Shown here piece by piece: positions 15,862-64,000 of a stretch of 64,000 bases of DNA. The first letter of the stretch is position 1; each line of letters starts with the position of its first letter. The position numbers were made by a program, and so were the translations under genes. The notes beneath the pieces are model-generated. The model had not been told where the DNA came from, did no database searches, and was given only the letters and a program-made list of their open reading frames with translations. The DNA is taken from the NCBI GenBank assembly GCA_030272155.1, contig CP126199.1:3398501-3462500 (forward strand), given 5' to 3'. The DNA comes from Tetradesmus obliquus. Lineage: Eukaryota; Chlorophyta; Chlorophyceae; Sphaeropleales; Scenedesmaceae.

Positions 15862-18800
15862 TCATCCCACAAAGCCCGCCGCGCCGTTGCGCTTGCCGAG
15901 GTACTTTGCAGCAGCCTCGTCAACCCACTTCTCGTTGAACACGTCGGTGCGCCGCTCCACCTCGGCAGGCCCGGCAAACATCTTGGGCACGCGCACCTCA
16001 CGCGCCTGCAGGACGATGCGGCAGAAGCGGCATAGAAACAGCAAAACAGGCGCTCATGAGTGCGCTGATCAGCGCAGGTGCGACAGCAGGATACATGCCA
16101 CGCAGCGCTAGTACTCTGTGCTCACGGTACGTATGTTACACCAATACAGAACAGCCCGTTTTTATTACACAACAACCCATCGACAGGCTCACTGGGCAAC
16201 AGCCAAACCCAACCGCCAAATCTCACCGCTGCTGCAATGGCTGCATTGAGCATGGCCACGGGCGCCTCGGCAAATCCCAGCAGCATGGCCCGCCGCCGGC
16301 GTGCCTCAAAGAGCTTGGCCAGCTGCGCTGCGAGCTTCTGGTCCATTGCCTCAAACTGCAGCAAGAAAGAGGAGCAAGACAGGCATAAGAGGCATATTGC
16401 TTGGCGAAGCATTGGAACAAGAGTCAGGCATGCAGTGGTGCAATGTAAGCTTCTGGTCCATCGCCTCAAACTGCAGCAGAGAAGAAGAGGAGCGCACGAG
16501 GAATAAGAAAGGCGAGTGTGCCGCGGGGCAGCAGGCTGGCCTCATGCTTCAGACTTTCAGGACCTCAGGACAGCTGACAAAACATGCTTGCAAGCATCCT
16601 TGAATGAAAGTATGTCATCTTGCTGTTGGCATTCACTAAATCCCTCTTTTTCTTTCCTACTACAAAGACACTCACCTGCTTAGCATCCAGCAGCGCGTCC
16701 AACATGGGCAGCAGCACGTCTACATTGCACCAAACGCAGACATGCTCACCACACCCATCCCTTGTCGACGAAACCGAGTCACCCACCTGCTGATCGTCCA
16801 GCAGCGCGTCCAGCATCTGCACGCAACGCAGCTGTCCGTTGGTGTACACTGGAACACCGCCTTTTCAAAACAAACCAAACCAATACACGCATACTCACCT
16901 GCTTATCATCCAGCAGCGCGTCCAGCGTGGGCAGCAGCTTCTCCTGCACCTTGAGCGGCAGCAGCACATCCACGTCAAGGCACGTCACAGCGCCAGGGCT
17001 GGGGCCCGACACGCTGCAGCAGCAGCGGCAGCAGCGCAGCAGCAACAGCAGCAGGCGGATATGCCAGGTAAGCAGGCAGACTGGTCAAGGGTGACGCGCT
17101 TAGCAGGGTGCATGTAATGACATGCACAGGCGCTGGGCCAGTTGGCGTACAACATACACCGTAGCACCAGCTGCCATGACTCAAGGCACCCATGCTGAAG
17201 GCCTTGCTCTACTACTGGCACATACTTGCGCTGCAAACTTGCAAAAATATGCCGCAGCCGCGCTCACTCGATGGTGTGCTGCACCTTGATCGGCTGCACC
17301 GGCTGCAGCAGCTTGCCCACTGCTGCAGGCAGCGCCTCGCGCACCAGCTGCTGGCAGCCCATCAGGCCAGCCAGCTTCTCATCAAGCTGCAGCACTGGCG
17401 AGCGCGCATCCTGCGGCACATTGCAGCACACAGCGATGTGAAAACGGCTTTGGAACAAGCATACGCTGCAGCACTGGCGAGCGCGCATCCTGCGGCACAT
17501 TGCAGCACACAGCGATGTGAAAACGGCTTTGGAACAAGCATACGCTGCAGCACTGGCGAGCGCGCATCCTGCAGCACATTGCAGCACACAGCGATGTCAA
17601 CACGGCTTTGGGACAAGCATACGCTGCAGCACTGGCGAGCGCACATCCTGCAACACAACAGAAAACAAGTAAGGCACACAGCATGCGGCACAAGGTGGTG
17701 TTACAACACGGCATTCGGACCAGCACATACAGCGTCAAAGGTGCAGAGCCTGCATGTCATGTGGTGTTTGTTTTGAGACAGCCTGCTGCTTGCAAAGCGG
17801 TGTGCTCCACAGATCGTCCTGTGGTGAGCACTGGAGAGCATGGGTAACACTGCACAGCTGATGCTGGCTGCGCAGTGGCCTGGCAAGGGTGCTGCAATCA
17901 GGCCAGCGGCGCACCTGAGGCTTCTGGTTGTGGATGTAGCTCCACACGCGCGCCAGCACGCTGTTCTGGGGCCCGATGCTTACGCCCAGCAGCTGTGCAG
18001 GGCCACAGCAGCAGCAGCAGCAGCAGCAGTAGAAAAGCTCAGTTGAGGACAAATAGTGCACTGTTACTGACTGCCTTCGTCACGCTGTGTTACAAACTTA
18101 AACGGCACGACACATGTATGCTGCGCTTTTATGCCCATGCTGCAGCAACCCACAGTACCTGGAACGGTAGCTGGAGCCGCACCTGGATCAGCAGCAACAT
18201 ATGCATACACAACATGCATACATGGCCTACAGTGGCCAAATAGGTTGACATGCATTGTTGTCGCTTTGTCTGTTGCCGCACCTCTGCCAGCCGCGGGTCA
18301 AGCACATATGCTTGGGGCATGAAGTCCTGCGTCAGCGTGATGTCTGCTGTTACATTGCTGCTGCCCTGCCGCTTAATCTCTAGCCGGTCCTTGTGCGCGC
18401 CCCTGCAGGTGGTGTACCAATAAGACGATGCATTAATGATTGAGAATCCATCAAGCGAGCACGCAGGGTCTAGTTCCAACCTGTGTGCACAGCTGCGTGG
18501 TGTGAAGTCCGCATAATCCCTCCGGTGCCGCCATGAAGAATAGTGAGCGCACGCCAACAGCGGCCAGAGAGCCCCGCATCACCTCTGGTGCACAGAACTG
18601 CCATCACTGTGCATTTTAGGCTGCCACACAAGATCAATGCTGATAAAAGCTGCCACAAGCTGCCGCCACAGCAGCAGCAGCACTGCCGCCGCCTCACCTG
18701 TGCATGAACTTGTCCCACTCAAACAGCCCCTGGCTGCCCGGGTACTGCTGCTGGTCCAGCTGCACGCAGATGTGCTTGAAGACGCTGCTGAAGGGCTGCG

Positions 18801-20096
18801 CCTTGCCCAGCACTGCTGCTGAGCCGGGCTGCTGCTGACCTGGCGGCGCTGGGCCCAGCTCCTTTGGCTGCGCTGAAGCCTTTAGGGAAGCAAGCAAACA
18901 GAGACAAGGTGTTATGTATACATGGGATGAAACTTGTGTACAGTATAGTGTCTTGTAGTTCGCAGCGGTGCATGATTGAGGCAGACGAGCGGCACTGGGA
19001 CAAGCTCCTTGGGTTGCGCTGAAGCCTGCACGAACAGCCACGGCAAGCCGTATGTCACTGCTCAGTCACATGCCTGCACAGGTGATTCAAACCAACCAAC
19101 AGCACATCAAGGAGATCCAGTCATGCCCAAATGCCGGCTGGCATGGTTGTATCCTGTAGCTTCTGCTACTGTATTCTGCACACCGACCTGCATGGCAGCC
19201 GTTAGGGCCGCTGGGGCACTGTCAGCCGGAGCTGGGGGATCATTCAAGTCCACCAGGCGACCCCACAGATTCAAAGTCCACTGCGGCGGCTCCTGCAAGC
19301 TGCTGCTGCTGCCGCTGCCAGGTTGCTGCCCTGCGCTGCTGCTGCTGGTACGCGGCAGCACCTGCTGCTGCTGCTGCTTGGCGGCATCCTGCGCTGCTGC
19401 TGCTGCTGCCGCTGCTGGTTGGTTGGCGTGCGTTGCGAAGATGTAGATGCGTAGGCGCTTCATCACTGGGTGATCATACGGTGCTGATGCTGCTTGGATT
19501 GCCAAGCGCTGGCGCTTGATTTGGTTGTCCAGCTCCCGCTCCTGCATCACGAGCTGATTGAACAGCGCTGACTCTGGGATCAGGGGGTAGGCCTGCGCGC
19601 AACACCCAACACAGCCGACGCACTTGCAGCTTCTGATACCAAGATGACAAGACGATGGCCAGCCACGCCTGTGCATGCAAAGCTCGCGGTCTTTTGATGA
19701 GAAGACAGCGATTGAGCTGCACTGCTACACAGCTGGCATGCTCCAAGGCAGTCCCATGATCAGGAACAGCAGCCTGCAGCCGAGATTGACATCCTCAGTA
19801 CAGCTGCTGCAGCAGCCTTGTGCCCAGCTATGTCAAGGCAGGTTTGCATGCCCTGTTTGGGCTTGTATGCTTGGCAGCGCACTCACCTTTTCAGTAGGGG
19901 CCTTTTCCTGTGCCTTCCTCTTCTTTCCTGCGAGCTTTCTTTGAATTTCTAATCCTGCTGCTGCCGCCGCTGCTGCTCTCTGTGCCTGTGCCTGCTGCTG
20001 GGCTGCGTTGGTCATAGCTGGGCGCGCAGCAAGCTGAGCTTGCGCCAGCAGTGCTGCATGTGGATGCACCATCGCCAATCCTGGTAGTCCTGACAT
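15862..20096 (-). CDS. BAF60/SWP73/SMARCD subunit of a SWI/SNF chromatin remodeller
   Basis: This is an accessory subunit of SWI/SNF complexes, nuclear, linking the remodeller to transcription factors. Exon 1 (20096-19887) starts MSGLPGLAMVHPHAALLAQ and holds a basic segment (GKKRKAQEK). Exon 2 (19592-19188) has the family hallmark YPLIPESALFNQLVMQEREL and, later, VMKRLRIYIF. Exon 3 (near 18880-18700) carries FSSVFKHICVQLDQQQYPG, exon 4 (near 18400-18285) has LEIKR and TADITLTQDFMPQAYVLD. The SWIB fold is split over an exon near 18000-17915 (SIGPQNSVLARVWSYIHNQK) and one near 17420-17264 (LDEKLAGLMGCQQL, LQPVQPIKVQHTIE). Later exons encode LPLKVQEKLLPTLDALLDD, FEAMDQKLAAQLAKLFEARR and, at the end, FNEKWVDEAAAKYLGKR before the stop. 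Three exons have decayed junction copies in adjoining introns. It diverges from the transporter gene, with 449 bp between start codons. Confidence 0.92.
16334..16500 (-). repeat. Duplicated acceptor junction (BAF60 FEAMDQKL exon)
   Basis: GCTTCTGGTCCATTGCCTCA at 16334 recurs at 16449 with one change and similar flanking purine-rich sequence, about 115 bp apart. In gene sense the lower copy is the true exon start (CTGCAG then TTTGAGGC). The upper copy lies upstream in the intron and keeps its own CAG acceptor. Confidence 0.85.
16673..16960 (-). repeat. Triplicated donor junction (BAF60 LDALLDDKQ exon)
   Basis: CACCTGCTTAGCATCCAGCA at about 16675 has relatives at about 16787 and 16898 (spacing about 112 bp), all followed by a GCGCGTCCA-type stretch. 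In gene sense each reads LDALLD(D/A)(K/Q)Q followed by a GTG(A/G)GT donor. The copy at 16898-16960 continues into the upstream exon, so it is the original; the others lie downstream in the intron. Confidence 0.85.
17386..17655 (-). repeat. 79-bp tandem repeat carrying a splice acceptor (BAF60 SWIB exon)
   Basis: GCTGCAGCACTGGCGAGCGC starts at 17386, 17465, 17544 and (one change) 17623, an exact 79-bp period; the last unit is partial. In gene sense each unit contains CGCAG or TGCAG followed by the exon start encoding DARSPVLQ. Only the unit at 17386 runs on into the SWIB exon (LDEKLAGLMG). The other three are intronic copies upstream of it. Confidence 0.95.
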
Positions 20097-20545
20097 GACT
20101 GCAGCAGTGATAGCTGATGCACAGGTGCTTTGCTGCTTGCTGCTGAACAGGTCAGGTGAAGTAGATCAGCGGGGGCTGTAACTTTGAATGCACACAGATG
20201 AAATTTGAGATATCAAACGTCCCAGTCCTCGCGCTCGTTGCCAATCAGGCCTACAACCAGCAAGCAGGACAGCACGTACACCAGCTCACACTGCTTACAT
20301 GTGGAAGCAAGCGTCGAGCGTGACTGTTGTTCTACCAAATAGACTGAAAAGTCTAAGCAATTTAGTACTGGTGATCACAAGTTCTGTTTCCGCGTGTGGG
20401 ACATTACACCTGTGTTACGGACACAGGTCTACTTATAGGGTCTGAGAGAACAGCAGCGTAGACTTTAGGGGCCTCGCGCCAACATCTAAATCATCACAGC
20501 TCTTTCAAGTGTGTTGTTCTGTTCGCCAGGGCCATTGGCAGCACA
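20097..20545. promoter_or_regulatory. Divergent promoter interval, BAF60 / transporter
   Basis: 449 bp separate the BAF60 start (20096, -) from the transporter start (20546, +). A TTATAG-like string near 20432-20439 is a weak candidate TATA element for the + gene. Nothing else was recognised. Confidence 0.45.
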
Positions 20546-24693: not shown

Positions 24694-27600
24694 ATGTCAG
24701 ACGTGACACCCCCCAGCATCGAGGATGGTGAGCGCCCAAGCGCCCCACTAGTTACTCAAAATCATAGAGTAGACTTGCATGCCCATGCACCAGCCATCCA
24801 CCTGGCTGCAGCATGATGCGGCCTGTCCCTCACAGTCAGCAGTCAGCAGTCGGCATACGTCAGCCTCGGCTTCACCCTGTCCGCCAAAGATAAAGCTTGA
24901 TTGTTATGTGCTGGGCGGACTTGACCAACCCCCAAGCTCCGGCCATGACCTGTTTGCTGCACTTGGGGTGTATGCTGCACATATTTTAGCCTGATGCATG
25001 CAGCGCTGTCATGCCTCATGCCTGCTGACAGGCACACCTGTCCGCTTGCAACACCATACCCATACACCAGAAAATAAAACAGTGAAACAACATGTGCAAC
25101 GCTGTGTGCTGCAGTGTTCTCCCTGCGGCGGCCGCGGGACATCCGTGCGGGCCTCAGCTCAGGGCTGAAGTCAGTGGGCAAGGGCGTGCTGGGAGGGGCA
25201 GTGGGGCTGCTGGCTGCGCCCATTGTGGGGGCAGCGACAGACGGCCTGCCCGGTTTTGCCAAGGGTGTGGCAGCAGGTGAGCAGATGTGCAGTGGCAAGG
25301 ACTTAAATGTACCCCACCTGCAAACCAACACCCCCATCCACCTGCCGTCAAGTCAGCAGCATGTAGAGTGCCGCTGGAGGTGCGCCGGCTGCAGCAGCAA
25401 GGGAGTGTCCTAGGTGAGGCTGTGTAACGATGGTGCAGCCAGGATGACATGGCTGGCAGCAGCACCGCATGCCTGCTAGCAACTGGCTGCATAGGTTTGA
25501 ACCTGTGTCTTCCCGTTTGTTTGTGCTGCGCAGGGGTGGCAGGTGCTGTGCTGCTGCCGGTTACTGGCGTAACTGTGGGCATGGTGCAGGTGAGCCGGCA
25601 GAGTGTGCAAGCGAAAACCACTATAAACACATACACACCTGCTTGAGCTATGCGAATAGGAAGTTGAAGGCCCATCCGCTCACGCAGCAGTTTCTTGGGG
25701 TGTAGCTCAATGCTTGGGGCTGCTGGGTTGTTGTGTCCACCACTGCGTATGTGCACCGCTGACCAGCATGGCAGAGAAACACACACAAGGACATGGAGGG
25801 ACAAACCTGAGCATTGTTTCGTGTTAAATGCGGCTGCAGGTGGCGCGTGGCGTTGCCAACCAGCCCACGGCACTGCTGGAGAGCCTCAGGGGCAAGGCAT
25901 GGGATGAGGTGAGCGGGTTAGGGTTTTGAATTGGGGTTTAAATCAAGGGTCAGCTGAAGGTTAGGTTTAGGGTTGGGATGAGGTTTGCTGCGGTGAGATG
26001 AGAGGTTTAGGGTTGGGATGAGGTTTGTTGCAGTGAGATGAGAGGAGCAAGCGCAGCTATGGCTTTGGTCCCCCCAAGCCGCTTCAAGTGTTTTGGGTGT
26101 TCACATGCTCACAGCAGGGCCATGTAGCAGTGCATCAATCCCTTGTAGACTGTGTCGACGTCAATGCTGCGCCTGCGCTGTTTCAAGCTTCACGTCTGTT
26201 TCGTTACTGCTGGCCTCGGCGCACAGCAAGTACTGCACATGCAGCACATGCAGCAAGCAGCCATTTTGATGCTATGTACACATCTTCGTTCTCACTCCCT
26301 GCAGGAGCAGCGCACTTGGGTAGAGCAGCCGCAGCATGCACTCACGCCACATGACGCAGCAGCGGCATCGTCTGCGGCCGCACACTGGCAGCGGCTGGGC
26401 CTGCCGCCACTGCAGAGCAGCAGCGCGCAGCAGCTGGATTACTATGCGCTGCTGGAGGTGCCTAGGGATGCATCGCCTGAGCAGATCAAGAGGCAGTACT
26501 ACCAGCTGGCCCGCAGGTAAGGCGCTAGGAAGACAGAGTTGCAAGCACGTGAATGCTTACCTACTGCCTGACGTAGGCATGTTTGCAACCATGGCATTGT
26601 ATGGGGCAGTACTACCAGCTGGCCCGCAGGTGAGGAGCTAGGAAGAAAGGGTTGCAAGCGCATGAGTGCTTACCCGCTGCCTGGCGTAGGCATGTTTGTA
26701 AGCACGGGATTGCATGGGGCACTACTACCAGCTGGCCCGCAGGTGCGGCGCTGGGATCCTAGCATGCTGAGCATCTTAGCATGCTGTGTATGTGCATCAT
26801 TTGTGTCTGTTCTGCAACAGCGGGGGCTGCTGTGTGAGAGTCACCGCTGAAAGCAGCGCTCGCATGCTGCACGACTGATCTGCTCAAGCTGGCACATTGG
26901 CTCTAGGATGCAACACCTGGCAGGCCAAGGGGACGCAAGGCCTCCGCTGCGCTGTATGCTGTGCTGAAGTGCATCTGGATCTTCTGAGGAGCTGTATTGC
27001 CGCGCTGCTGCGATGCCGTGCAGGCACCATCCAGACAAGAATGCAGGGGATGCAGAGGCACATGCGCGCTTTCAGCAGTTGGGCCATGCTTACCAGGTCA
27101 GCATCCTCTTGCTTCGGCTGCCTCTCTGTTGGTGGTTCATCCTGCAGTTCTGCATATGCTTGAACTGGCAGGCAGACAACTGCTATGTATTCAATGCTTG
27201 GACACGTCACGACAAACCATGTAACTACACTTCCATTGCATGTGTGCCAATGCATCCCCCCTTCGGGTGCCAGGTGCTGAGCAACCCTGCGCTGCGCAAG
27301 CGCTACGATGCTGCTGGTGCAGCAGCGCTGGCTGACGTGGACTGGCTGGAGCCCGGGGCCTTCTTCGCTGCGCTGTTTGGCAGCGAGATGTTTGAGCACC
27401 TGGTGGGAGAGCTGGCCATTGCCAGCATGGCCAGGTGAGCGCAGCCCAGTTTCTGGTTCTAAAGGCGAAAAAGGTCCAAGTCCATAAACTCATTTTTCTG
27501 TTTGAGCACCTGGTGGGGAACCTCCCAATCTCAGCATGGCCGGGTAAGCACAGAACCCAATTGGCAAGCAACCACAGCATGCTATCATTACTGCATTGAA

Positions 27601-28707: not shown

Positions 28708-28740
<33 letters not shown>

Positions 28741-29155: not shown

Positions 29156-29198
<43 letters not shown>

Positions 29199-30693: not shown

Positions 30694-30725
<32 letters not shown>

Positions 30726-43993: not shown

Positions 43994-45075
43994 GCAGCAG
44001 GGCCGCCTCACCTGCCAGCCGTCCTCCAGCAGCACCAGTGAGGCCTTGTGGTTGAAGATGTCTGCGAGTGGCACCATGGCATCACCTGGGGCAGCAGCAG
44101 CAGCAGCAGCAGCAACATGGTGAGGTTGAAGATGTGGTGCCTTGTGGTGCCTTGCGGTTGAAGATGTCTGCCAGCAGCACCATGGCGTCACCCCGGGCGG
44201 CAGCAGCAGCAGCAGCAGCAGCCAGCAGCAGCATGGTCAGCAGCACAGTTGTTCAGGGCAGGGGGTTGAGGCATTGCCGATGGGGAGTTCCGCCAACGGT
44301 CCACAACACAACAGCGCATGCGCACACAGCAGATGCTGCTATCACCCACCGCCCTGACACAGCCGGAGCCGGAACGCACAAACACACGCAAAACACACCA
44401 ACATATACTAGCCACGGCATTGTGAAGGGTAAAAAACTGATGGCGCAAGCACCCCGCCTCCTCACCGTGCCATGCATCCACATGGAATGAGCGGCTGGCC
44501 ACCCAGCTGGCTGCGGTGCGGAAGTGGCCCAGGCTGCACAGCTCGGGGTGGGGGAAGGCCTGCGGCAGCAGACAACAACAGCAAGGCACACACTGTTGTA
44601 TCTACATATGCGTGATTGAAATGATTGTGCCGCATCGTGCAGCGTGGAAGTGGCCCAGGCTGCACAGCTCGGGGTGCGGGAAGGCCTGCAGCAGCAGCAC
44701 ATAGCAGCAAGGCATACACTGTAATAATAATGCGTATTAATACTATTGTGCCGCATCGTGTGGCTCAGCGTGGCCCAGGCTGCACAGCTCGGGGCGGGGG
44801 AAGGCATGCGGCAGCAGACAACGGCGACAAAAATATGGAGATGACGGCCCAATAATGCACTGCAGGGCTGTAGAGGGAGGTGAAGCGTTGCTGGCTGCTT
44901 CTTTACCGCTTCAGCCCCATGCATATGTGTGTTTCACTCACTGTGCCGCTTGTGGTGGTGCCGCCGCGGCTGAGACACTGGTGTACCGCGACAAGGAAGC
45001 AGTCGCGTGACATTGTCACCGTGATTTGCTGGTGCTTGCTAAGCTGCTGCTGTTACAAGCAAAAGCAAGCGCTGT

Positions 45076-45115
<40 letters not shown>

Positions 45116-46907
45116 CACCTCCTTGTGTTTGGCCATAAGGGGCAGCACATGCGCCTGGTAGTCCTCCTCCGTTTCACGCCTGCAGCAGCGGCAGCGGCAG
45201 CAGCAGCAGCAGCAGCAGTGCAGTGAAGTGCAGTGGTACAGTGGTGGAAGTGATGCTGCCTCAACAACCAGCAGCATCTGCAGCCTGCACGTTGCCTGTC
45301 CCAGTAGCCCGTCTGCTGCCACCCAGCAGTAACGAGTTTATGCACAGCTGTTGCCATGCTTTACAGTTGCAGTGCTTGTCACTGCAGGCATATTGTCAAT
45401 GCAGTTGCATGTATTAATTGACATCCTCAGCCACTCCACTGTTGTTGTGCCACCTCTGGAGGTCGTTTTCACAAGCACGCTTACACCCAATCAGCCAGCT
45501 GCGCACCCGACACCCTACTTTGCTACCCCCCCCCCCCCCCCCCCCCAACAAAAGCAGCAAACACAGCAAACCACCACGCACCTGTCATCCTCAGCCACGC
45601 CCTCCAGCGCTGTGCCTGCAAGCAGCGCCAGCTCACCCTGCACACTATCAAACCCTACACCATCAACATCAGCCCCAAACCCTGGCTCAAAACCTCAGCA
45701 GCCGCCGCACCTGTCATCCTCAGCCACGCCCTCCAGTGCTGTGCCTGCCAGCAGCGCCAGCTCCTGGGCGCTCCAGAACATGGGCAGGTACTCGCGGGCA
45801 GGCAGCGAAGCAATGTAGCCGGCCCTGCGCAGGACCAGCGGCAGCAGCAGCAGCAGCAGCAGCAGCAACGCCACGTCGCGCTGCATTAGACAGGCTTGGG
45901 ATGCCTTGCAGGCAAGGTCTAATGCGGCTGTCAGCATCATTCACTGCCTTGCAGGCAAGGCCGAGTGCGGCTCTCAGCATCACCTTGAGGCAAGGTCTAG
46001 TGCGGACTGCAGCATCATCCATTGTCATGACTACTGCCACCCTACTTCAGCGCGGACTGTCAGCGCGGACTGCAGCGCATGCACAGGAGGCACACGCCGG
46101 CTATGTACATAAATACATGCAGCAGGCAAGGGCAGCCTTGCTTGCCTCATGTATCAGGCTCGCGGTGTCACAAGGTGGTACAATGTAGCCTCCATAAACA
46201 TTGCTTTTCACGCTGCTGCTGCCACTGCTGCTGATGCTGCTGATGCTGCTAGTGCTCACCACTTGCTGCGCTGCCCCAGGCTGGCCTCGTACATGAGCGC
46301 AATGGTCAGCGCCAGCCCACCACCTAGCTTCTCAGACTCCAGGATCTGCACATTAATAACAATAACAACAATATTGTTGTGTGATGGGGCAGAGGATAAG
46401 CAGAAAGCAGAGGATCAACCAAAGCTTTGTCTATATATGTATGATGTGACACTGTCATGCTACAAGTTTGCAGGGGGTAAGCAGAGAAATATCTTTGTGG
46501 TGTGTGTTCTTGGGCATCAATACTGATGTACCCAATAGATTATGCACGGGCACAGCAAGCGCTACTCCTGCACACAATTGGCAGTGGCAATACTGCTACT
46601 AGTACAGCTCTCTTGGCAACGACTTGGAGGCCTGCAGTGCTGCCTGACACCCCTGCGCCTGCTGCTCATCTTCCTTCTCTCGCCTCACCTGCGCAAGCTG
46701 TGTGGTGCGTGGCGACAGGATTGCGGCTCGGGGTATGACGCACAGCAGCTGATTCTCCTGGATGTCAGACTCAGCAAACACACCGAGTGCCGGCCCGCTG
46801 CAGTTGCTGCAGCCGCCACGAATCTGCACCAGCGACTGGTCCCACCAGATGCCAACTGACTGTAGCCATTCGACTAGCTGCGGGAGGCTGCTGCTGCTGT
46901 CCTCCAT
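41253..46907 (-). CDS. SETD6-like protein-lysine N-methyltransferase (SET + Rubisco-LSMT substrate-binding domain)
   Basis: Exon 1 (46907-46689) encodes LPQLVEWLQSVGIWW, then GVFAESDIQENQLLCVIPR (first strands of the SET fold). Exon 2 (46345-46260) has GGGLALTIALMYEASLGQRS. An exon near 45830-45720 has YIASLPAREYLPMFWSAQEL and LLAGTALEG. Later exons give TEEDYQAHVLPLMAKHK, AFPHPELCSLGHF, VASRSFHVDAWHG and GDAMVPLADIFNHKASLVLL, which contains the cofactor-binding NHK(A). Further on, EIVAASPVAAGAEVHNTYGE and LSNQALVHKYGFCLPANPFD supply the catalytic Tyr (NTYG) and the end of the SET domain. The last exon (to stop 41253) contains a Gln-rich region and an LSMT-type helical end. Large inserts (acidic Asp/Ser repeat, poly-Gln) break the SET domain between NHK and NTYG. 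Relatives methylate nuclear proteins. Substrate unknown. Several exons have junction copies in introns. Confidence 0.9.
42864..42912 (-). repeat. Exonic CAG array (poly-Gln) in the SETD6-like gene
   Basis: About 16 CTG units on the + strand, which read CAG and poly-Gln in the gene's sense, in the insert just before EIVAASPVAAGAEVHNTYG. Shorter exonic CAG runs lie near 42725-42795. Confidence 0.85.
43588..43632 (-). repeat. 12-bp exonic repeat encoding DGSN units
   Basis: TCATTACTGCCG-type 12-mers are repeated three to four times in the SETD6-like gene, giving the tetrapeptide DGSN three times in a row inside a 50-residue Asp/Ser/Glu-rich stretch. Confidence 0.85.
44041..44220 (-). repeat. 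Duplicated acceptor junction (SETD6 NHK exon) with a decayed copy
   Basis: GTTGAAGATGTCTGC and flanks occur at about 44051 and 44157, 106 bp apart. In gene sense both follow a CTG array and CCCAG/CCCGG, and read GDAMVPLADIFNHK (lower, real) and GDAMVLLADIFNRK (upper copy). The upper copy has lost the invariant His and the AG acceptor, so it is probably a pseudo-exon upstream of the real one. Confidence 0.85.
44521..44830 (-). repeat. Triplicated acceptor junction (SETD6 AFPHPEL exon)
   Basis: TGGCCCAGGCTGCACAGCTC begins at 44525, 44651 and 44771 (spacing 126 and 120). In gene sense each has CTGC(C/T)GCAG followed by GCCTTCCCxCACCCxGAGCT. Only the lowest-coordinate copy continues into RTAASWVASRSFHVDAWHG. 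The other two lie upstream in the intron. Confidence 0.92.
45079..45114 (-). repeat. CTG/CAG array after the EEDYQAH exon
   Basis: Twelve CTG units on the + strand (CAG in gene sense) at the end of the exon encoding EEDYQAHVLPLMAKHKE. Whether they are coding (a Ser run) or just intronic depends on the donor, which I could not fix. Confidence 0.75.
45526..45546. repeat. Run of 21 cytosines
   Basis: C from 45526 to 45546 without interruption, in an intron of the SETD6-like gene (G run in the sense strand). Length is prone to sequencing error. Confidence 0.9.
45579..45775 (-). repeat. Duplicated donor junction (SETD6 GTALEGVAEDD exon)
   Basis: CACCTGTCATCCTCAGCCAC starts at 45579 and 45708 (129 bp apart) and is followed in both by a near-identical stretch ending GCCAGCTC. 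In gene sense it reads LALLAGTALEGVAEDD followed by AG and GTG. The upper copy is the true exon end; the lower copy is in the downstream intron. Confidence 0.9.
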
Positions 46908-46989: not shown

Positions 46990-46991
<2 letters not shown>

Positions 46992-47700: not shown

Positions 47701-47710
47701 TGCAAATATG

Positions 47711-49251: not shown

Positions 49252-49297
<46 letters not shown>

Positions 49298-52004
49298 GGA
49301 ACAACGGGAGTGACGGCGTGTTGGCAACAGTGCCAGTTTCACATGCTGCAACAAGGCAAAAGCAGGGCACTAGCATGAGCCGGCATGTTGCATGTTTGAA
49401 CGCATGAACTCCGCCGGCTGACTGTAAGAGGAGGATATTTACAACATAAGCTAGCACTCGAAGGAATCCGTGCAACATCAGTTGATCCAGGGCACTTGCC
49501 ATGGCTGCATGGCGTTCATTGGGAGCTAATTGAGAACAGCCGCCAAGAGCAGCCTGCACAGTGCGCTGGCCAGCGCTGTGCACCCACCTCGATTGTAGCC
49601 AGTGCTGCTGCACAAGCCACTGCATTGCCACCTGCAAGAGCAGACAACAGCAGCACGGCAGCACAGCAGTGATCCAATGGAAGCTTTTAACATCAACTGT
49701 GGAGGCCTTCTCACCATGCCCAGAAAAACACTAGGTAGCAGAAGCAGCGGGCACTGGCCAGTCTTTCAATAGCGACAAAGAGGGTGGAGTGCTGTGATGC
49801 ACAGGTGCGTGAACACACAGCAGCAATGGTGCAGGTTGCAACCAACCACTTCAGCAAGCCTGCTCGTCTGCGTGCCTGCTGCCAGCTCACCGTACGTGCC
49901 ACCCATCGTGCCTGGCTGCATGTTGTCAAAGTGGTGCTGCCTGGTCGCCACACCTGCAGCCAGCCACACACACAACAGCAGGATACCGTCACATGCAGCC
50001 TTGTTGCAGACCTGACAGCAGTGACATGCAGCACATTCGCTCAAGCAGCACTAAGCTGCCGCTGCACAGACTGAACTACCTAGCCGGCTGCACCCCGCTC
50101 TTCAGCACCTGCACGTAACACCAGTACCTGTAATCAACCAGTTAAACGCCGCTTCATCACCACACCTGCCAGCGGGTAGCCACTAGCGATGCCCTTGGCG
50201 AAGACCACCATGTCTGGCTGCATGGCGCCGCCATCAAACTGGCCGTGAGCCCACCACATGCCGCAGCGGCCAGCGCCAGACTGCACCTGCAGCAGCAGCA
50301 GCAGCATGGGGGCATAAACAGGAGGATTCAGTAGGCACCAGCAGTATGCCACCCGCCCTAACATGCAGCTTGTAAATTTCTGGGCATCGATTTTTCATTC
50401 AGCCAGGATTTTTCATTCACCATGCCTTTTACTACACCCTGCAGACACCTCCTGAACCCTACATTCCTGCATATAAAAACCCTGAACCCTGGTGCCACAC
50501 ACGCCACCTACAGCCGCACCTCATCTGCGATGAGCAGTATGCCGTGCTTATCGGCCAGCTGTCTCAGCCCCGCCATGAAAGACTGAAGCCCGCCATGAAG
50601 CCAGGGGGCGGTGTGAGGAAGCCTCCCTCGCCCACCTGGCCTCGCATACAGCATTATACCTGTCGTCACAAGTGAGCATATCCCCGGCACCTTCATATCC
50701 CCGGCAGGCACCTCCCAATACCTACAGCCCTTCGCACCTCATCTGCAATGAGCAGTATGCCGTGCTTGTCTGCCAGGGCTCTTAGACCTGCCATGAAGCA
50801 CTGGGGAGGGGTGAGGAAGCCTCCCTCGCCCACCTGGCCTCGCATACTGCATTGAACCTGTCCTCTCATAAATGAGGCAACACCTTCATCTCCCCGGCAG
50901 ACACCTCCTACTCCCTACAGCCCTACGCACCTCATCTGCAATGAGCAGTATGCCGTGCTTGTCAGCCAAGGCCCTGAATCCAGCCATGAAGCCAGGGGGC
51001 GGGGTCAGGAAGCCTCCCTCACCCACTTGCCCCGGCATACAGCTGCACACCTGTCGTCACAAAACTGCAACCCTTTCCTTTACCGTGCAGACACCCTCTG
51101 AACCCTACATCCCTGCATGCTGACGCCCTGAACCCTGGTGCCGCACCAGTCGACTAGCTGACAGTACTGTGGCCGCACCTCATCTGCGATGAGCAGTATG
51201 CCGTGCTTGTCTGCCAGCTGTCTCAGCCCCGCCATGAAGCCAGGGGGCGGGGTCAGGAAGCCTCCCTCACCCATGATGGGCTCCAGGATGATGGCAGCCA
51301 CATCGCCTGGGTGCACGTGCTGCACCAGCATCCACTCCAGCGCCTGCGGCAGCAGCAGCAGCAGCAGCAGCAGCAGCGGCGACGGCGGCGCTTGGTGGGT
51401 CTGTATAGTGGTGTCGATTGCGTAGCCAGGGTTCTCTTTGGTGTGAAAAGAATGATGCTGTCTCTCCGGTACACAACAGACCAACAAGGACCACACTTTT
51501 GGCTGGAGTTTTAGTTGACACCCCACACATCAAAGCGCACATGCAGTGCCTTGAGGCAGTTTGCCAGGCTACCACCAGCTACCTCGCTTGTCGCAACCGC
51601 GTCACACCACGTCAATCCTTTGCCCCCTCCTGCCCTCGGAAGCAGCATGCCGTACCTCCTGTGGTGCGCCGCAGCAGACGCGGTTGTCTGGCGAGTCAAA
51701 AGGCGGCATGTAGGGAGCCACATGGTAGCCGCTGTGACCCTGCAATTGCAGTGCATCGCACAGCATGGCAGGCAGCACGTGTAGCAGCAATACGGATTAC
51801 ATGCCAAGCACAGTGTCATAAAAACTGACACGTATGGCTGCCCAGCTCCAACGGCACGCATCAAAGTGCAGTAACGCTAGCTGCATGCAGCAGCAATCCT
51901 GGAGCAAAGAATGCGCCACGTACACGCTATACCGGGTGCTGTGCCATACATGCGGCGACTTTGGCACATGCACTTGGGCGCTTGCAAGCTACAGCGAATG
52001 TAAG

Positions 52005-52036
<32 letters not shown>

Positions 52037-53941
52037 ACCTTCTCCGCTTGCACCTTGCAGTGCAGGCAGTAGGGGTAGGGCGCGATGTGCACGCCCGGCA
52101 TGAAGGGGCCAAAGTGCTGCTTGTAGATGACCTTGCTGGTGGTCAGCGCCATGGCCCCGATGCTGCGGCCGTGGAAGCCGCCCTGCGGAGTGGAACGTGA
52201 CATGACACAGCATGGTGACGTTTTGCGTCGTGAATTATGGCAGCAGGGAAGTGGATGCATGTCATTTAAGCAGCCATGGTCAGCGCCATGGCTCCGATTC
52301 TGCGGCCATGGAAGCCGCCCTGTGGAAAAGCACATTGCATGAAGCGACAACATTGCAGTCTTTCTGTGGTGGTCAGAGCAGCACAGGTGAAGGGGATGCT
52401 TGCCATCAAAAGCGGCTTGCACCCAGGGGTATGAGCTGGCTGATACTCCCTCACAATGGCGTGGCAAAGCTACGAGGTACAACTCATATCAGGAGCTGAA
52501 ATCTAGCAAGATGCACCCAGCCCTCATACAGACTGCTGGACGAGCCTCTATTTGTGAGCCTGGCACAAGCTGGGCCACTCACATCGAACGCGATGATGCA
52601 CTCCCTGCCTGTCGCTGCGCGTGCGATCTTGACCGCGTTGTCGACCGCCTCGCTGCCGCTGTTGCAGTAGAAGTACTTGGTCAGCTGCTGCGGCATGATG
52701 CGCGACAGCGCCGCATCCAGCTCCAGCTGAAGGGTTGGTAGTTTCAACACACAAATGATTGTTTTTATACAGACAACAGAAGGTGGTTTGGTTGGCAGAT
52801 TGCAGACACAAGAAGATCAGCATGCATAGGGTGGCATGGGCAATGACCTGCGTGATAGCGCTGCATTCAGCTCCAGCTGGCAGTTGAAGCAGCAGTTGCT
52901 TTTGTTGCACTTTTACATATGGAGAGACAAGCAGGCTCGCAGACATGTGTGTTGTAGTACTTGCATGCAGGTGACTGCACCTGTCGCATGTGAGGTGTAA
53001 CTGCAAGCAGAAAGTTTATTCATCAATAGCCCGCTGTGTCAGCCCCACTGCTGGGTCGAGCAACTAAGCCAGCACACCAGTAGTGCCATGCGCAACTGCC
53101 ACTTGCCACTTATCAGGGGGCAGTAACAGGGCCGCACCTGCTTTGTGTGCGCCTTGAAGATGTTCTGCTGCGCGTGCACAATGTTGCCTGCCTGCTCCCG
53201 CACAGCCTCAACTACTTTGGGATGGCAGTGGCCTGTGGAGGTGGCTCCAATGCCTGCAGGGCAGCAACCATGCTTGACGTTGATTTGAGTTGCAAGAGCA
53301 GCAGCAAGGTGTGTGATTGGCACTTGGGTACAGCGGGCGTTCTAGTGCAGCGGCACATACAACACACCCAGGCCATGCGCCAAACATTGCACACCCTGCT
53401 GGGGGTCAAGTTTGCGTGAGTGTGTGTGAGGAAAGTACTGCACTGAGTGTCTGCTACTGCTACCAGTGCCTGGTATGCTAGCCTTAGCGGCTGCTGCTGC
53501 ACTAAAACAGTTCTATTGCCACCTGCAGGAACTGCTTATGCCTGCTAGTAGAGCTCGTTAAACTGCGCGGCACTGTGCTGCACAACACGGCCATGCCTGC
53601 AAGCCTGTCTGCTAATGCCCTCGAGCACGATCCTGCAAGAGCTGCGCACACAGCTGCACCTGCTGTCACCCGTGCTGAGCAACTACCGCCACGTCTGCAG
53701 CGCGCTTATGCAGCACAGCAGCCCCTGCTGATGACGCTGCTGCCACTGCTGCTGCTGCTGCCGCTGCTGCTGCCGCTGCTGCTGCTGCTGCCGCTGCTGC
53801 TGCTGCCCCCGCTGCTGGTGCTGCTGCTGCTGCTGCTGCTGCTCCTGCTGCTGCGCCAGCCGCACCTGCGGTCATGTCGAGGTACTTGTTTCCTGCAGTG
53901 TCCCAGATCCAGCTGCCCAGGCCCTTCTGCACCACTATGTC
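48031..53941 (-). CDS. Class III PLP-dependent aminotransferase, GABA-transaminase (GabT)-like; 5' exon not found
   Basis: The enzyme would transfer the amino group of 4-aminobutyrate (or a similar omega-amino acid) to a keto acid. Relatives are mitochondrial or plastidial. The exon chain starts at 53941-53866 with [20 protein letters not shown] and LDMTA, then [40 protein letters not shown] (PLP phosphate-binding region), [87 protein letters not shown] joined to [20 protein letters not shown], and [19 protein letters not shown] with the Schiff-base Lys in FAKG. It continues [43 protein letters not shown] and [18 protein letters not shown]. It ends with [19 protein letters not shown] and stop 48031. 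The Met-containing first exon and any targeting peptide must lie above 53941. Three junctions have intronic copies. Confidence 0.88.
49257..49295 (-). repeat. CTG array before an aminotransferase exon
   Basis: About 13 CAG on the + strand (CTG in gene sense) that run into CCAG, the acceptor of the [15 protein letters not shown] exon. Confidence 0.9.
50517..51250 (-). repeat. Four-copy donor junction (aminotransferase ILLIADEV exon)
   Basis: CACCTCATCTGC(G/A)ATGAGCAGTATGCCGTGCTT and following sequence start at 51177, 50928, 50734 and 50517 (spacing 249, 194 and 217). In gene sense each ends [10 protein letters not shown] before GAG-GTGCG. Only the copy at 51177 continues into GFMAGLRQL and EPIMGEGG. 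The other three lie downstream in the intron and grow less similar towards their ends. The copies also share flanking text such as GGGGCGGxGTxAGGAAGCCT. Confidence 0.95.
51349..51376 (-). repeat. CTG array before an aminotransferase exon
   Basis: Nine CAG units on the + strand, which in gene sense are CTG running into CCGCAG, the acceptor of the [14 protein letters not shown] exon. Confidence 0.9.
52133..52325 (-). repeat. Duplicated acceptor junction (aminotransferase GGFHGRS exon)
   Basis: GGTCAGCGCCATGGCCCCGA at 52141 recurs with few changes at 52279 (138 bp apart). In gene sense both read CAG then GGCGGCTTCCA(C/T)GGCCGCA. The lower copy continues into the exon, and the upper one is upstream in the intron. 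Confidence 0.92.
52690..52885 (-). repeat. Duplicated acceptor junction (aminotransferase LELDAAL exon)
   Basis: GCG(A/T)GAxAGCGCxGCATxCAGCTCCAGCTG occurs at about 52701 and 52851 (150 bp apart). In gene sense both read CAG-like then CTGGAGCTG(G/A)ATGC(G/A)GCGCT. The lower copy is the real exon start. Confidence 0.85.
53740..53856 (-). repeat. Compound CTG/CCG-type array in an aminotransferase intron
   Basis: CTG units mixed with CCGCTG and CTCCTG on the + strand (CAG/CGG in gene sense), lying just downstream of the donor at 53865 in the gene's sense. This is an exception in strand sense to the intronic CTG pattern. Confidence 0.8.
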
Positions 53942-59648: not shown

Positions 59649-60839
59649 TGTGTTTGCTCACAGCAAGCAGCCACCCCATCCCCATGGCAATATTCGCGCC
59701 CAATTAGTTCGAAATGATTGAAACCAGCTGAAAATTGACATTCTGGTACTAAACAACGTGTCACCTGAAATCCCGCGTCATATCCCGCGTCCCGCCCTGG
59801 GAAACCCTACATGACTGGTTCCCCTGGTTCAGCACCGCTGAGCAGATGGTGCACGAAAGGCATTTCCCCAGAGGACGTGCTCGGTTAACGGGTAGAACAG
59901 CTCAATCAACTGTTAGAATGGTATCAACACCAGGTAGTGCCACTAGAGCAGGGCTGCAGCTGTGACCAGCCGCAGAACGACTTGCTTGGGCATCACAGAC
60001 AATCCTGTTCAGTTGTACTGGATAATATAGAGTGCCACAAACCCGACGGCAGTACGTTACCGCTAGACATGCAGTGCATCAGCAACATACAAAACGCAGA
60101 TGGAGCGTCTGGCTGGTGCACGGCACTGCAAACTCTGCTTTGCTAGCAGCAACATGCTGGCACACCAAGCGCTGGTGTCAGATCCTTACCATGAAATGCT
60201 GCGCCAAAAAACTTATGCAGATGTTGGAGGTTTGAGAAATGCTATAGAATGATAAGTTATTGATGTTGTGTGGGCACAACATGCAGCTTACTCAGCTGTT
60301 TGATGGCCCAAACTCCCTACTTGGCTATGACGCCACCTTGGCTACAGCACCGTGGATGTTGCGGACCACTGCAAGTTTGAATAACATGCAGTTACAGTTG
60401 CCCACCCCATGGGCATGGTGCCCAGCTACCTGTGCACAAGAGAGCCAGCAACTGAAGGTGCAACCCGCCTGTGGGTCACAGGTGCTGTGTGTAACAGAGC
60501 ACAACATTGTTAACACAGCACACACTATTCCTTTTCGTATACACGCCATGCGGCGCAACTGCTACATGCACAACTCATGCATTACTTCGCATCCATCAAC
60601 ACGTCATGCTGCCCAGCTGACCCCATGGAACAATCTCCCTGCTTCTTGCCCAACACAACCCTTTGTTTGGCTTGCTCACTTCCCTTTGGTCCACATGTTG
60701 ACAATGTGCCCTCAGGAAGGGGCTCATACCATCTGAGACAGTGACTGGACCCCCATGTACCTACAATAAAATCTCCTCATCAATAAAATCTCCTCATATC
60801 TATAAAGCAACACTTCATTAAACCATTTGCCTCAGGCCC
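59649..60839. other. Intergenic region between LRR and GH17 genes
   Basis: About 1.2 kb that should hold the LRR promoter and the GH17 3' UTR. A doubled CCCGCGTC (59773-59793) and a doubled AATAAAATCTCCTCAT (60765-60797) are short direct repeats. No gene was recognised. Confidence 0.5.
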
Positions 60840-61571
60840 TCACTCCGCATCAATCCCAACCACCTTGCTGCCACTGTGCGCCACCAGCCCCTTATCAATC
60901 CTCCTATCAGCACTGACCAGCCCAAAGTGCTCATCTCCCAGCACACCCTGTGACAGCACGCTGGGCTGCAGCTGCAGCGGCAGGCTGCGCGGGCCGTGCG
61001 GGTGTGCTGCCAGCAGCCCTTTGAGTGTGCGGCTTGCAGAAAGTGCCAGTGCAGCTCCCTGGCGCAGCGCGGTCTTCCAGCCTGCGTCTGCCAGCTCATG
61101 GTAGAAATAAGCGACGTTGTGCTTCTCGGCGGCCTGTGTAGTGCAGCGGCAGCAGCAGCACAGGAACTTGCCCACGCATGTGCAAACGCCACGCATGATG
61201 TGATTCGATCACACGCTGTGCCAGCTTGCATGCTAGTCAAAGACTCCTCATTGAGCAGCGCAGCGAGCGCTGTGTCAGGATTCATGTGAGTACTACATCA
61301 GAACAGCAGGGGTTGCAGGTGCCAAGGTAACACTGCACATTCACAAGATACTGCAGACACCCCTGCTCACCTGCACCCATGCCTGTGCAAAGGCAGCCGC
61401 ATGCTCCAGCCCCGACCTGCTGCTGTCCACCTCGCCGCTGCGGCTGGGCCAGCCGATCTCTGCAATGAACACAGGCTTGGCCCCGGCCTCCTCCTGCAGC
61501 TGGCGGTGCTGCTGCAGCGCCACGCCAACAGCAGAGCTGGCCCAGCTGCAGCACAGCACGGGTTAGTTTAC

Positions 61572-61607
<36 letters not shown>

Positions 61608-64000
61608 CACAAACGACTAAGCTGTGTGTTGTGCATGTTTGCGATGCTGCTGCCCTGGCTCAATCAACAAAACAACCTGTGGCTACCGCGCAGCGCATGC
61701 ACACCAACATAGAGGGCATTGCATATCATACACCAATGCAAGCAGGGGCCGCCGCACCTCTTCTTGCTGGTGTCTATGGCGCCAGTGAAGAAGGGCTGGA
61801 TGACCGCCCCCACTGCATCCACAGCAGCAACCAGCTCGGGGCTGAATGCAGCCGGCAGCTCCACAGTCAGCACTGGCACAGCAGCCAAGCGCTGGCTGCC
61901 GGCCTTCTGCGCGACATCGCGGACTACTGTCCGCACCTGCAGCGAGACAAGAACAAAAAGGGGGCACAATGCGGCATCATTTGAAGGCGGGGAGCAGCTG
62001 GCCGCTGCATGTTTGCAACCTGTTGCTGGCAGGACAGCAGTAATATAACACACACCGGCAAAACAGCATGTAGCTGAGTTGTGTGGGCAGCGCTGTGCTG
62101 TGATGCTTCATTACTTGCTGGCAGCTTTATGTGCTACAGCCTTGTCCATGTCTTTTGTTGGCGGCATGTTTATGTATCTCATCCTGGTGATGCTTCAACA
62201 CTGGCGGCATACAACAGATGAAACGACACAGCACACCATCTGTGGTCCTCTCTTTAATTTGGCTGCAATGGCTTTTGCTCAGTTTTGGAGCTATGCTATG
62301 CCGGGGCGGATGCACGCGCACCTGTGCGATGTACTGCAGCAGCTGCTGCTCGCTGACATCACCCCTGCTGACTGCCTCATTGCCCACAGCAATGCCTGCC
62401 AGGTTGGCTGAGGGATACTCTGTCAGCAGCTTGCGCAGCATGTCAATCTGTGGAAGGCCAAGCAGCGGTGGCAGCAGCAGCAGTGGCGGCATCGCAGACG
62501 GCAGTGTTTTCAGGTTGCTGCTCAGCCCCATGGAAACACCAGCTACTAGCCGTGCTTTGACACACGGATATAAGAGCGCACACGTGTTCCGAAGAACAGA
62601 TGTGTAGGCTGCACCACACAACGTGTCTGCTGCTGACGCATACCGCCCAAGGGATGCTGCTACACGTTTACAGTTGTGGTAGCAGGTTATCAAGCATTCC
62701 GCAAGTGCATTGCCTGAACCATTGCATGCACAGCATCAGGCCTCCTTAGCAACTGTCCAGCTTGATTCTCTGCCAGTTTGCTGGCGCTGGTGAAACAGAC
62801 AAGCTGGTCACAAAGTGGGCTTTGCTATTTTTATAGGCATGGATCACCTGTGCCTTGTTGGCAGCAGCATCCCTGCCGATCCACACCCCCAGCAGCCAGC
62901 TGATCTGGCTGTTGGCTGTGGTGTGGTGCAGCAGCATGCGCATGAGCTCCGGGCACTCCACGGAGTAGGTGCGCATGCGGTACGAGTACCTGCCAGCAGC
63001 AGCAGCAACAGCAGCAGCAACAGCAGCAGCAGCAGCAGCACACAATGATGAGCACGCTGATGATGTGGTGAAAGCGCACTCATACCTACCAGTACCTGCG
63101 AGCAGCAGCACGGCAAGCATGACTGCATTGGTTGATGCGGTGCAACGCACAGCACAGAAGATGATGCGCATGCTTGGCTGAGCCGATGCCCAAGGCAGGC
63201 GGCAAAAGACGTTGGCACAGCCGGCACAGTCCACAGCAACTGCTGGGGCACTTTGTATCCCCACAACCACCAGCAATACTACCAGCCAGCTGCTGTGGGG
63301 TGCGCCTCAGTTGGATGTGCGTTCCGCTGATCTCTGTGGCAGCCCCCATACATGTAGCCTACACGTAGCATTCAGAAAGCCAATGACACATGCTGTAACA
63401 GTGGCCCAGCCGCACCTGCAGAGCAGGTCAAAGTACACATACTTCGAAAAGTAACATGTCAGTGACACATGCTGTAACAGCGGCCCAGCCGCACCTGTAC
63501 AGCAGGTCCAGGTCAGCGTCCAGCTCCTCGGGTGAGGGGCAGCGGCACACCTGGCGCGCCCCGTCACACGCCTGCAGCAGCAGCAGCAACCGCAGCAGCA
63601 TATGTCAGTCAATGCCCCTGATTGCAAAGCTCTACGTCAGCAGTGACACCTAGCTAGCACAATGCTAGCTAGCCCAAACAGGCAACATGACGCAGTGCGT
63701 GCCTGCCAGTGATCCCCTGCCAAAACTGTTGACTTTGCTAACCTCACACATTGCTGCTGTATGCATTGCAGCCGAGGCAGCTCTTTTACAACTCACGTGC
63801 TCCCTCCTCCAGCCATATGTGACTCCCCACAGCGGCTTGCCAGCCCTGCCCCCAGCAAACGGGCTGCTGATGCTGCTGCTGCTTGCAGCAGTCTGCTCAC
63901 TCAGTAGAAGCTTGCGCAAGCTTTTGCTGCCCTGCTGCTGCTGCTGCTGCTGCTGTTGCTGCTGCTGTGGTGTGGTGTCCGTTGCTGCCGCTTCAGAGGA
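60840..64000 (-). CDS. GH17 beta-1,3-glucanase, Bgl2/Scw-like; 5' end outside the window
   Basis: This is a glycoside hydrolase acting on beta-1,3-glucan of walls or storage material, probably secreted. The first exon in view has poly-Gln, then GGRAGKPLWGVTYGW. Next comes CDGARQVCRCPSPEELDADL (exon end near 63497), YSYRMRTYSVECPELMRML and SWLLGVWIGRDAAANKAQVI. Another exon has LLTEYPSANLAGIAVGNEAV, with the acid/base Glu in GNEA. Further exons carry VPVLTVELPAAFSPELVAAV and AVIQPFFTGAIDTSKK. The nucleophile Glu appears in KPVFIAEIGWPSRSGEV. The last exon has NVAYFYHELADAGWKTALR and GDEHFGLVSADRRI and ends at stop 60840. Order and spacing follow the fungal Bgl2/Scw type (GVTYSPY, IRLYG.DC, GNE, ISEIGWPS). 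The signal peptide must lie beyond 64000. One donor junction has an intronic copy (63381-63520). Confidence 0.9.
61575..61605 (-). repeat. CTG array in a GH17 intron
   Basis: About ten CAG units on the + strand (CTG in gene sense), about 30 bases upstream, in the gene's direction, of the acceptor of the FIAEIGWPS exon. Confidence 0.9.
62995..63042 (-). repeat. CTG array before a GH17 exon
   Basis: CAG units with AAC breaks on the + strand (CTG/GTT in gene sense) that run into GGCAG, the acceptor of the YSYRMRTYS exon. Confidence 0.9.
63381..63520 (-). repeat. Duplicated donor junction (GH17 DADLDLLY exon)
   Basis: GTGACACATGCTGTAACAG(C/T)GGCCCAGCCGCACCTG occurs at about 63383 and 63463, 80 bp apart, both running into (T/C)A(C/G)AGCAGGTC. 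In gene sense the upper copy ends the real exon (CTGTACAG then GTGCGGC), and the lower one is in the downstream intron. Confidence 0.9.
63938..63972 (-). repeat. Exonic CAG array (poly-Gln) in the GH17 gene
   Basis: About eleven CTG/TTG units on the + strand, read as CAG/CAA in gene sense and giving about twelve Gln upstream of KPLWGVTYG. Confidence 0.8.

What the first reader, a model, noticed from the sequence alone, without database searches (positions are those of the whole stretch)
16334..63520. Recurrent tandem duplications that straddle exon-intron junctions in five genes
At about a dozen sites (BAF60: three; DnaJ: three, perhaps four; SETD6-like: three; aminotransferase: three; GH17: one) a segment containing the end of an exon, the splice site and adjoining intron is present two to four times in tandem, mostly 76-250 bp apart. 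The geometry is consistent: acceptor copies lie upstream of the real exon and donor copies lie downstream, always in the intron. Many copies keep AG/GT and could be used as alternative splice sites. Internal exon duplications with no intron were not seen. This could be the footprint of a repair process that makes roughly 100-bp tandem duplications, with selection removing those not neutralised by splicing. It also resembles the proposed route of intron gain by duplication of an AGGT-containing segment. It would mean introns here lengthen by copying exon edges.
Basis: seen in the sequence. Interest (0 to 1): 0.9.

Follow-up and report, generated by a model that had tools for sequence, protein, structure and literature searches.

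The report
Exon-edge copies inside algal introns
In this alga-like genome, introns often hold an extra copy of the neighbouring exon's last or first 50 or so letters together with its splice site, and the two copies look like two diverged versions of one gene joined out of step rather than a fresh local duplication.

Summary
In 264 kb (window plus 200 kb of contig 1) there are 40 clusters of local direct repeats (inverted control: 1). By my reading 34 of 40 straddle an exon-intron junction, extra copies in the intron; simulated random neutral duplications predict 29%. Most sites are not clean tandem repeats but A-X-A: an exon edge of about 50 bp plus a few bases of splice consensus, a 41-118 bp spacer, and the edge again. 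Even where A is 94-100% identical, alignment mostly stops near the splice site; simulated duplications that similar align over the whole period. Copy and live exon differ mainly at third codon positions (20/17/65), much as two live paralogous gene halves do (8/6/29). At acceptors both versions look like genuine intron 3' ends. I favour two diverged versions of one junction joined out of register (0.4). Rivals: old self-duplications kept alike by conversion or constraint, or repair-type duplications. The introns pre-date the copies: intron lengthening, not intron gain. Limits: ab initio gene models, no RNA data, no related genome, 40 clusters. Organism name inferred.

The parts
16333..16493 (-). 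BAF60-like gene: acceptor plus exon-start copy, A-X-A, period 115
16666..16938 (-). BAF60-like gene: exon end plus donor, three copies, periods 111-112, spacers without detectable similarity to each other
   Evidence: (D16)
17386..17657 (-). BAF60-like gene: 79-bp array, 3.4 copies, at an exon start
18843..19027 (-). BAF60-like gene: acceptor plus exon-start copy, A-X-A, period 146
26492..26756 (+). DnaJ gene: exon end plus donor, three copies, period 113 (2.3 copies of the unit)
26537..26603 (+). spacer of the DnaJ array; 67 bp with an 88% match on contig 8, with short inverted ends read by eye
27389..27553 (+). DnaJ gene: exon end plus donor, A-X-A, period 110
44038..44220 (-). SETD6-like gene: 77-bp repeat, period 106, 87% identical, seen by the repeat finder only; junction status not tested
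   Evidence: D19
44512..44822 (-). SETD6-like gene: acceptor plus exon start, three copies, period about 126 (2.4 copies)
45577..45763 (-). SETD6-like gene: exon end plus donor, A-X-A, period 129; the region matches only itself in the genome search
50425..51273 (-). aminotransferase gene: exon end plus donor, four copies, differing mostly at third codon positions
   Evidence: (D10)
52140..52326 (-). aminotransferase gene: acceptor plus exon start, A-X-A, period 137
63381..63497 (-). GH17 gene: donor region, A-X-A, period 79; here the repeat is mostly intronic

Best explanation
Each simple site is two versions of one exon-intron junction placed in tandem: exon edge and intron end of version 1, joined about 120 bp out of register to exon edge and intron end of version 2. 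The versions had diverged as two coding lineages (alleles of very different strains, parental genomes of a hybrid, or a paralogue since lost) before they were joined, so exon edges still match and the fast-changing introns no longer do. The likely act is end-joining or template switching between homologues during break repair. Splicing then uses the outermost sites, the inner edge is left in the intron, and later slippage between the two A copies makes arrays with n plus 0.3-0.4 units. Shown: tandem placement, exon-limited homology, coding-like divergence, intron-end-like sequence on both versions at acceptors. Inferred: origin from two lineages, the joining step and the later amplification.
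For: (1) Homology is exon edge plus 1-20 bases of splice consensus in most A-X-A pairs. (2) Differences by codon position in 28 pairs, one per cluster, are 20/17/65, i.e. 4.7/4.0/15.4% per site; two live AKR gene halves give 8/6/29, i.e. 4.9/3.7/17.9%. A neutral copy predicts a third-position share of at most about 0.50; observed 65 of 102 (p=0.004); synonymous 58 of 97 against at most 0.44 expected (p=0.001). (3) Intron-side flanks keep weak residual homology as a group (matched mean 15.7, n=25, control 10.5, n=280, p=3.5e-4), exon-side flanks do not (p=0.31). (4) At 10 acceptor sites the intron before the unused copy is as pyrimidine-rich (0.67) as before the live exon (0.71), mid-intron 0.51, p=1.4e-5. 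(5) Two paralogue pairs in this genome show the same contrast: exons 85-100% identical while most of their introns do not align. (6) One copy of a coding end stops at the stop codon, in the 3' flank, with 4 synonymous and 0 non-synonymous changes (c1 87358): coding conservation, not splicing, can set the edge. (7) Only alignable edges could be seen, which would explain the junction bias (inference). (8) Four window arrays at junctions have 2.3, 2.4, 2.4 and 3.4 copies, as expected from amplifying A-X-A.
Against: No second lineage has been seen; the four searched regions that hold five such spacers match only themselves. Some A pairs are identical over 37-51 bp while their introns do not align, which asks for low exon divergence between the lineages. 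Residual homology is a group effect: no single site reaches rank p<0.05 (few controls), and against shuffles 7 of 25 right and 3 of 25 left flanks do. Some loci are near-full tandem repeats (c1 62911, 136436, 122268). Four of 28 copies carry frameshifting gaps, one copy (c1 10591) has a stop of its own, and 27389 and 181131 show neutral-looking decay. At AKR 176154 the live exon carries two derived third-position changes and the copy one first-position change relative to the other half, as a neutral copy would also give. Junction bias is also present among full-length repeats, by my hand count roughly 10 of 14, which this reading does not need.
Confidence: 0.4

Rival explanations
1. Old self-duplications of about 120 bp across a junction. 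The intron halves decayed fast, while the exon-derived copy stays alike through short-tract gene conversion from the live exon (DNA or cDNA templated) or through constraint on the copy.
For: Residual spacer homology; introns diverge far faster than exons in the paralogue pairs; several pairs seem to align further once indels are allowed (101632, 22537, 54110, read by eye); nine near-full arrays show exon and intron divergence near the neutral expectation (35 of 422 exon sites, 8.3%, against 133 of 1000 intron sites, 13.3%, summed by hand rows).
Against: Conversion resets the copy but does not give synonymous-biased differences afterwards; GT/AG kept in 34 of 38 copies (several per array, at least one row mis-mapped), near what about 8% divergence predicts; copies mostly lack a usable opposite splice site (6 of 23 donor and 0 of 15 acceptor copies reach the lower quartile of real sites), so they are hardly exons.
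Confidence: 0.3
2. Repair-type partial tandem duplication with filler (patch or fill-in repair of staggered breaks) making about 120-bp insertions, with a bias towards exon edges.
For: A-X-A architecture and a narrow size range; small tandem duplications from fill-in of break ends are established in mammalian cells (PMC8355091, passages read); partially tandem duplications in rice are recalled, not read.
Against: At acceptors the filler must be a working intron 3' end, and it looks like one; filler should not retain homology to the flanking intron; random placement fails.
Confidence: 0.15
3. One reading: random ~100-bp tandem duplications genome-wide, kept only where splicing hides them.
For: Some near-full-length tandem repeats exist at junctions and a few elsewhere (for example c1 136436, 37099).
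Against: Predicts 29% at junctions and aligned length equal to the period; observed about 34 of 40, and single A-X-A pairs align over 0.2-0.6 of the period.
Confidence: 0.08
4. The copies are functional alternative splice sites or alternative exons.
For: Splice dinucleotides mostly intact; coding-like substitution pattern.
Against: The period is a multiple of 3 in only 7 of 38 hand-listed cases; the c1 100157 array has two copies with in-frame stops; frameshifts in 4 of 28; no fair opposite splice site in most.
Confidence: 0.07

Closest known systems
Intron gain by tandem genomic duplication of an AGGT-containing exon segment (review PMC3443670, passages read; potato RdRp case PMC4974935, search listing only)
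   Same: Short tandem duplication in a gene, neutralised by splicing
   Different: Here the intron existed before and the copy lies inside it; no new intron is created
Small tandem duplications from fill-in of break ends (PMC8355091, passages read)
   Same: Local tandem duplication; that paper also scores tandem duplications carrying additional mutations
   Different: Here homology mostly stops at coding edges and the spacer is not a recent copy of the flank
Direct repeats near intron borders (PMC11782384, abstract read)
   Same: Direct repeats at exon-intron borders
   Different: Those are 4-30 bp, mean 11.4, compared between the two borders of an intron; here about 50 bp at one border, with the second copy inside the intron
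Dual-specific AGGT splice sites in tandem repeats (PMC10809524, abstract read)
   Same: Repeated splice sites in tandem
   Different: There whole repeat units are spliced in variable number; here copies mostly lack a second splice site

Membership tests
Intron gain by tandem AGGT duplication | New intron spans from the first AGGT to its duplicate | tested here: not met
   In 23 of 29 rows the copy lies 153-510 bp from the far intron end; intron length minus the period 155-318 in 14 of 16 introns computed by hand (three arrays left out; other two 495 and 573), usual median 276
Introner elements | Similar inserted element at many loci | tested here: not met
   Four regions holding five spacers match only themselves in the genome; exceptions: DnaJ spacer has one 67-bp match, one c1 33252 spacer holds a ~42-bp dispersed repeat; other spacers not searched to a result
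Partially tandem duplication by repair | A-filler-A structure | tested here: met
Partially tandem duplication by repair | Filler unrelated to the flanking sequence | tested here: not met
   Weak homology as a group, p=3.5e-4; single sites unresolved
Tandem or mutually exclusive exon duplication | Copy flanked by both splice sites | tested here: not met
   6 of 23 donor copies and 0 of 15 acceptor copies have a fair opposite site
Random neutral tandem duplication | Uniform placement and full-length homology | tested here: not met
Junction between two diverged lineages | Second lineage's intron matches the spacer | not testable with these tools
   No related genome is held for this one

The most novel reading that the evidence does not exclude
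The genome is a mosaic of two diverged parental genomes or strains whose introns no longer match. Exon-edge duplications, at roughly 1 in 20 of the splice sites sampled, are fossil scars of out-of-register repair between them, visible only where coding sequence still aligns, and they are a steady source of intron growth.
Probability: 0.25. Interest if true: 0.85.

Novelty: new variant of a known kind. Interest (0 to 1): 0.6.

Why it matters
It shows a common route by which introns lengthen that is neither transposon insertion nor intron gain, and that leaves exon fragments with mostly intact splice sites inside introns, a ready source of mis-splicing and annotation errors (my own gene finder chained several copies as exons). 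If the two-lineage reading holds, exon edges become a countable record of recombination between genomes too diverged elsewhere to compare. It is directly testable with one related genome and RNA-seq.

Tried and rejected
Two attempts to train the gene finder failed (learned triplet repeats as splice sites; one search had no seed exons); the version seeded with a codon-usage prior typed from general knowledge worked. Templated insertion of the edge into mid-intron: disfavoured, because the intron before acceptor copies looks like a genuine 3' end. Spacers as mobile elements: not supported for the five spacers searched; the BAF60 search was swamped by triplet repeats and says nothing. Copies as mini-exons: not supported. 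Selection on copy splice sites: 34 of 38 intact, not clearly above neutral expectation. A fixed period as the fundamental variable: only weak support (correlation of |A| and |X| -0.34, p=0.07). Few periods divisible by 3 (7 of 38, p=0.03; periods listed by hand) noted but not leaned on. Rows dropped: one search leaves out two arrays (c1 100157 and the aminotransferase array, where both copies may be coding) and clusters with under 18 exonic bases, keeping 28 of 40; three of its 28 are flagged for a stop, two of these shared by both copies and one in the copy alone. One search uses 25 hand-chosen pairs, 5 of them from two arrays. The 34 of 40 count rests labels plus my reading of BAF60 and c1 116728; the binomial test used 33. 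The 39-44% synonymous expectation comes from a simple simulation. The null simulation scored 901 of 1500 generated cases, with assumed age range and indel rate; only 18 of its detected junction cases reached 94% identity. Literature: 8 searches listed no paper that by title or abstract start describes exon-edge copies inside introns of green algae; only open-licence PMC papers are held.
Full report
What the window is. The window is C9:3398501-3462500 of a 104.66-Mb, 17-contig genome; the window is about 56% GC and rich in CAG/CTG repeats. The identification is inferred, not tested.

Checking the observation. After masking triplet repeats, BLAST self-comparison finds 13 clusters of local direct repeats in the window, none inverted, and 27 clusters in 200 kb of contig 1 ("c1"; inverted 1). 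By gene-model labels plus BAF60 and c1 116728, 34 of 40 straddle an exon-intron junction: 11 of 13 in the window, 23 of 27 on contig 1. The others are window 4923 and 55419, c1 37099, 136436, 33881 (uncertain) and 87358 (end of a coding region). Testing each predicted junction, 15 of 304 donor edges and 17 of 299 acceptor edges have a copy in their own intron, against 0 of 1770 permuted controls, 0 of 172 mid-exon windows and 3 of 374 mid-intron windows (score 34 or more). Two sampled regions cannot prove that the whole genome is like this.

Anatomy. Most sites are A-X-A. In 20 listed pairs A is 26-77 bp, mostly the last or first part of an exon plus a few bases of splice consensus; X is 41-118 bp; A plus X averages 126 bp. 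GH17 63381 is an exception, with A mostly intronic. Some loci are arrays: four at window junctions have 2.3, 2.4, 2.4 and 3.4 units, as if A-X-A had been amplified by slippage between its As; c1 100157 holds eight copies of an acceptor and exon start, two with in-frame stops. In c1 33252 four copies of A, 97-100% identical over 37 bp, are separated by spacers that are mostly unrelated (one spacer pair, z 4.6, and one flank, z 7.0, show partial similarity). Donors and acceptors are about equally frequent (15 and 14 of 29 rows). Subtracting the total period, host introns have about the usual length (155-318 bp in 14 of 16 computed by hand, three arrays left out, the other two 495 and 573; median of all predicted introns 276), and in 23 of 29 rows 153-510 bp of intron lie beyond the copy. 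So the event adds about one period to an existing intron.

Why the simple model fails. I simulated random neutral tandem duplications of 120 +/- 13 bp on the same sequences and gene models, evolved them with exon constraint, substitutions and indels, and detected them the same way (901 scored). Expected share at junctions is 29%; aligned length has median 1.0 of the period, with 11% below 0.65; for the 18 junction cases at 94% identity or more the 5th percentile is 1.0. Observed: about 34 of 40 at junctions (p=3e-12 with 33 of 40), and single A-X-A pairs aligning over 0.2-0.6 of the period, high-identity ones included. Ages and indel rates in the simulation are assumptions.

What the copies look like. 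In 28 pairs, one per cluster, differences between live exon and copy fall 20, 17 and 65 on codon positions 1, 2 and 3, with 58 synonymous and 39 non-synonymous. A neutral copy beside a constrained exon predicts 39-44% synonymous and a third-position share of 0.44-0.50; observed 60% and 0.64 (p=0.001 and 0.004). Two live, tandemly duplicated AKR halves on contig 1 differ by 8, 6 and 29 at the three positions over five exons, almost the same per-site profile. Yet the copies are hardly working exons: 4 of 28 carry frameshifting gaps, one has a stop of its own, and the splice site needed at the other end is mostly absent (6 of 23 donor and 0 of 15 acceptor copies). Splice dinucleotides are intact in 34 of 38, not clearly more than this divergence predicts.

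Spacers. The four regions holding five A-X-A spacers match only themselves in the genome (the tool skips simple repeats). Yet on the intron side matched flanks as a group retain weak homology (p=3.5e-4), on the exon side not (p=0.31); no single site is significant there, and against shuffles 7 of 25 right and 3 of 25 left flanks are. At ten acceptor sites the sequence before the unused copy is pyrimidine-rich (0.67), like that before the live exon (0.71) and unlike mid-intron (0.51; p=1.4e-5). So both members look like genuine versions of the same intron end, highly diverged. A kinase pair in inverted orientation (L035, L036) has exons 92-100% identical in 60-bp windows, two introns at about 35-73% and one at about 68-88% with large gaps, while 1.4 kb of 3' flank is 88-100% identical, mostly 95% or more. 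AKR exons at 85-96% likewise match little beyond their splice sites (2-19 bases of intron). In these pairs introns stop aligning while exons are still very similar.

Interpretation. I favour two diverged versions of the same junction joined out of register, probably in repair between diverged homologues. Exon edges stand out because they are the only parts of the two versions that still align; the match stops at splice sites, or at a stop codon in c1 87358, because coding sequence ends there. The main rival is an old self-duplication whose exon part is kept alike by conversion or constraint. Against my reading: no second lineage has been seen; some exon edges are identical while introns do not align; full-length repeats are also concentrated at junctions by my hand count; at AKR 176154 the three-way comparison fits a neutral copy as well. 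Near-full tandem repeats such as c1 62911 and 136436 may be ordinary duplications.

Known work. Intron gain by tandem AGGT duplication is well described (PMC3443670, passages), and the Drosophila near-intron-pair paper ascribes some novel introns to tandem duplication (PMC2891723, abstract). Direct repeats of 4-30 bp at intron borders were surveyed in 2025 (PMC11782384, abstract), AGGT dual-specific sites in 2024 (PMC10809524, abstract), and small tandem duplications from fill-in repair in 2021 (PMC8355091, passages). None of what I read describes exon-edge copies inside pre-existing introns with unalignable spacers.

Noticed in passing
L035:1-3501 and L036:1-3501 (C11:4523600-4527100 and 4530700-4534200): Inverted pair of kinase genes: exons 92-100% identical, two introns hardly alignable (35-73% in 60-bp windows), 3' flank mostly 95% or more. 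Suggests very fast intron divergence or exon-limited homogenisation.
   Followed up: partly
L035:2086-2110 and 2188-2212: A 25-bp repeat of the coding end with its stop codon, one period (102 bp) downstream in the 3' flank; the alignment shows it in both paralogues, with one mismatch in L036.
   Followed up: no
L011:7358-7648 (c1 87358-87648): A 65-bp copy of a predicted coding end that stops at the stop codon, lying in the 3' flank, with four synonymous and no non-synonymous changes.
   Followed up: partly
window 26537-26603: Spacer of the DnaJ array has short inverted ends (by eye) and one 88% match on contig 8 (L002:1501-1567), perhaps a tiny mobile element.
   Followed up: partly
L013:157-1089 (c1 100157-101089): Eight copies of an acceptor with a 60-66 bp exon start coding for KPCPTCKTDIADYM; two copies carry an in-frame TAA.
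   Followed up: partly
L006:3345-3386: About 42 bp inside a spacer with five listed matches of 90-95% on other contigs.
   Followed up: no
window 25963-26045: Telomere-like AGGTTTAGGG motif in a 40-bp repeat of 2.1 copies.
   Followed up: no
window 4923-5042: 40-bp minisatellite of 2.8 copies outside predicted genes.
   Followed up: no
junction duplications, window and c1: Periods divisible by 3 are few (7 of 38 hand-listed, p=0.03), as if in-frame mis-splicing were selected against.
   Followed up: partly
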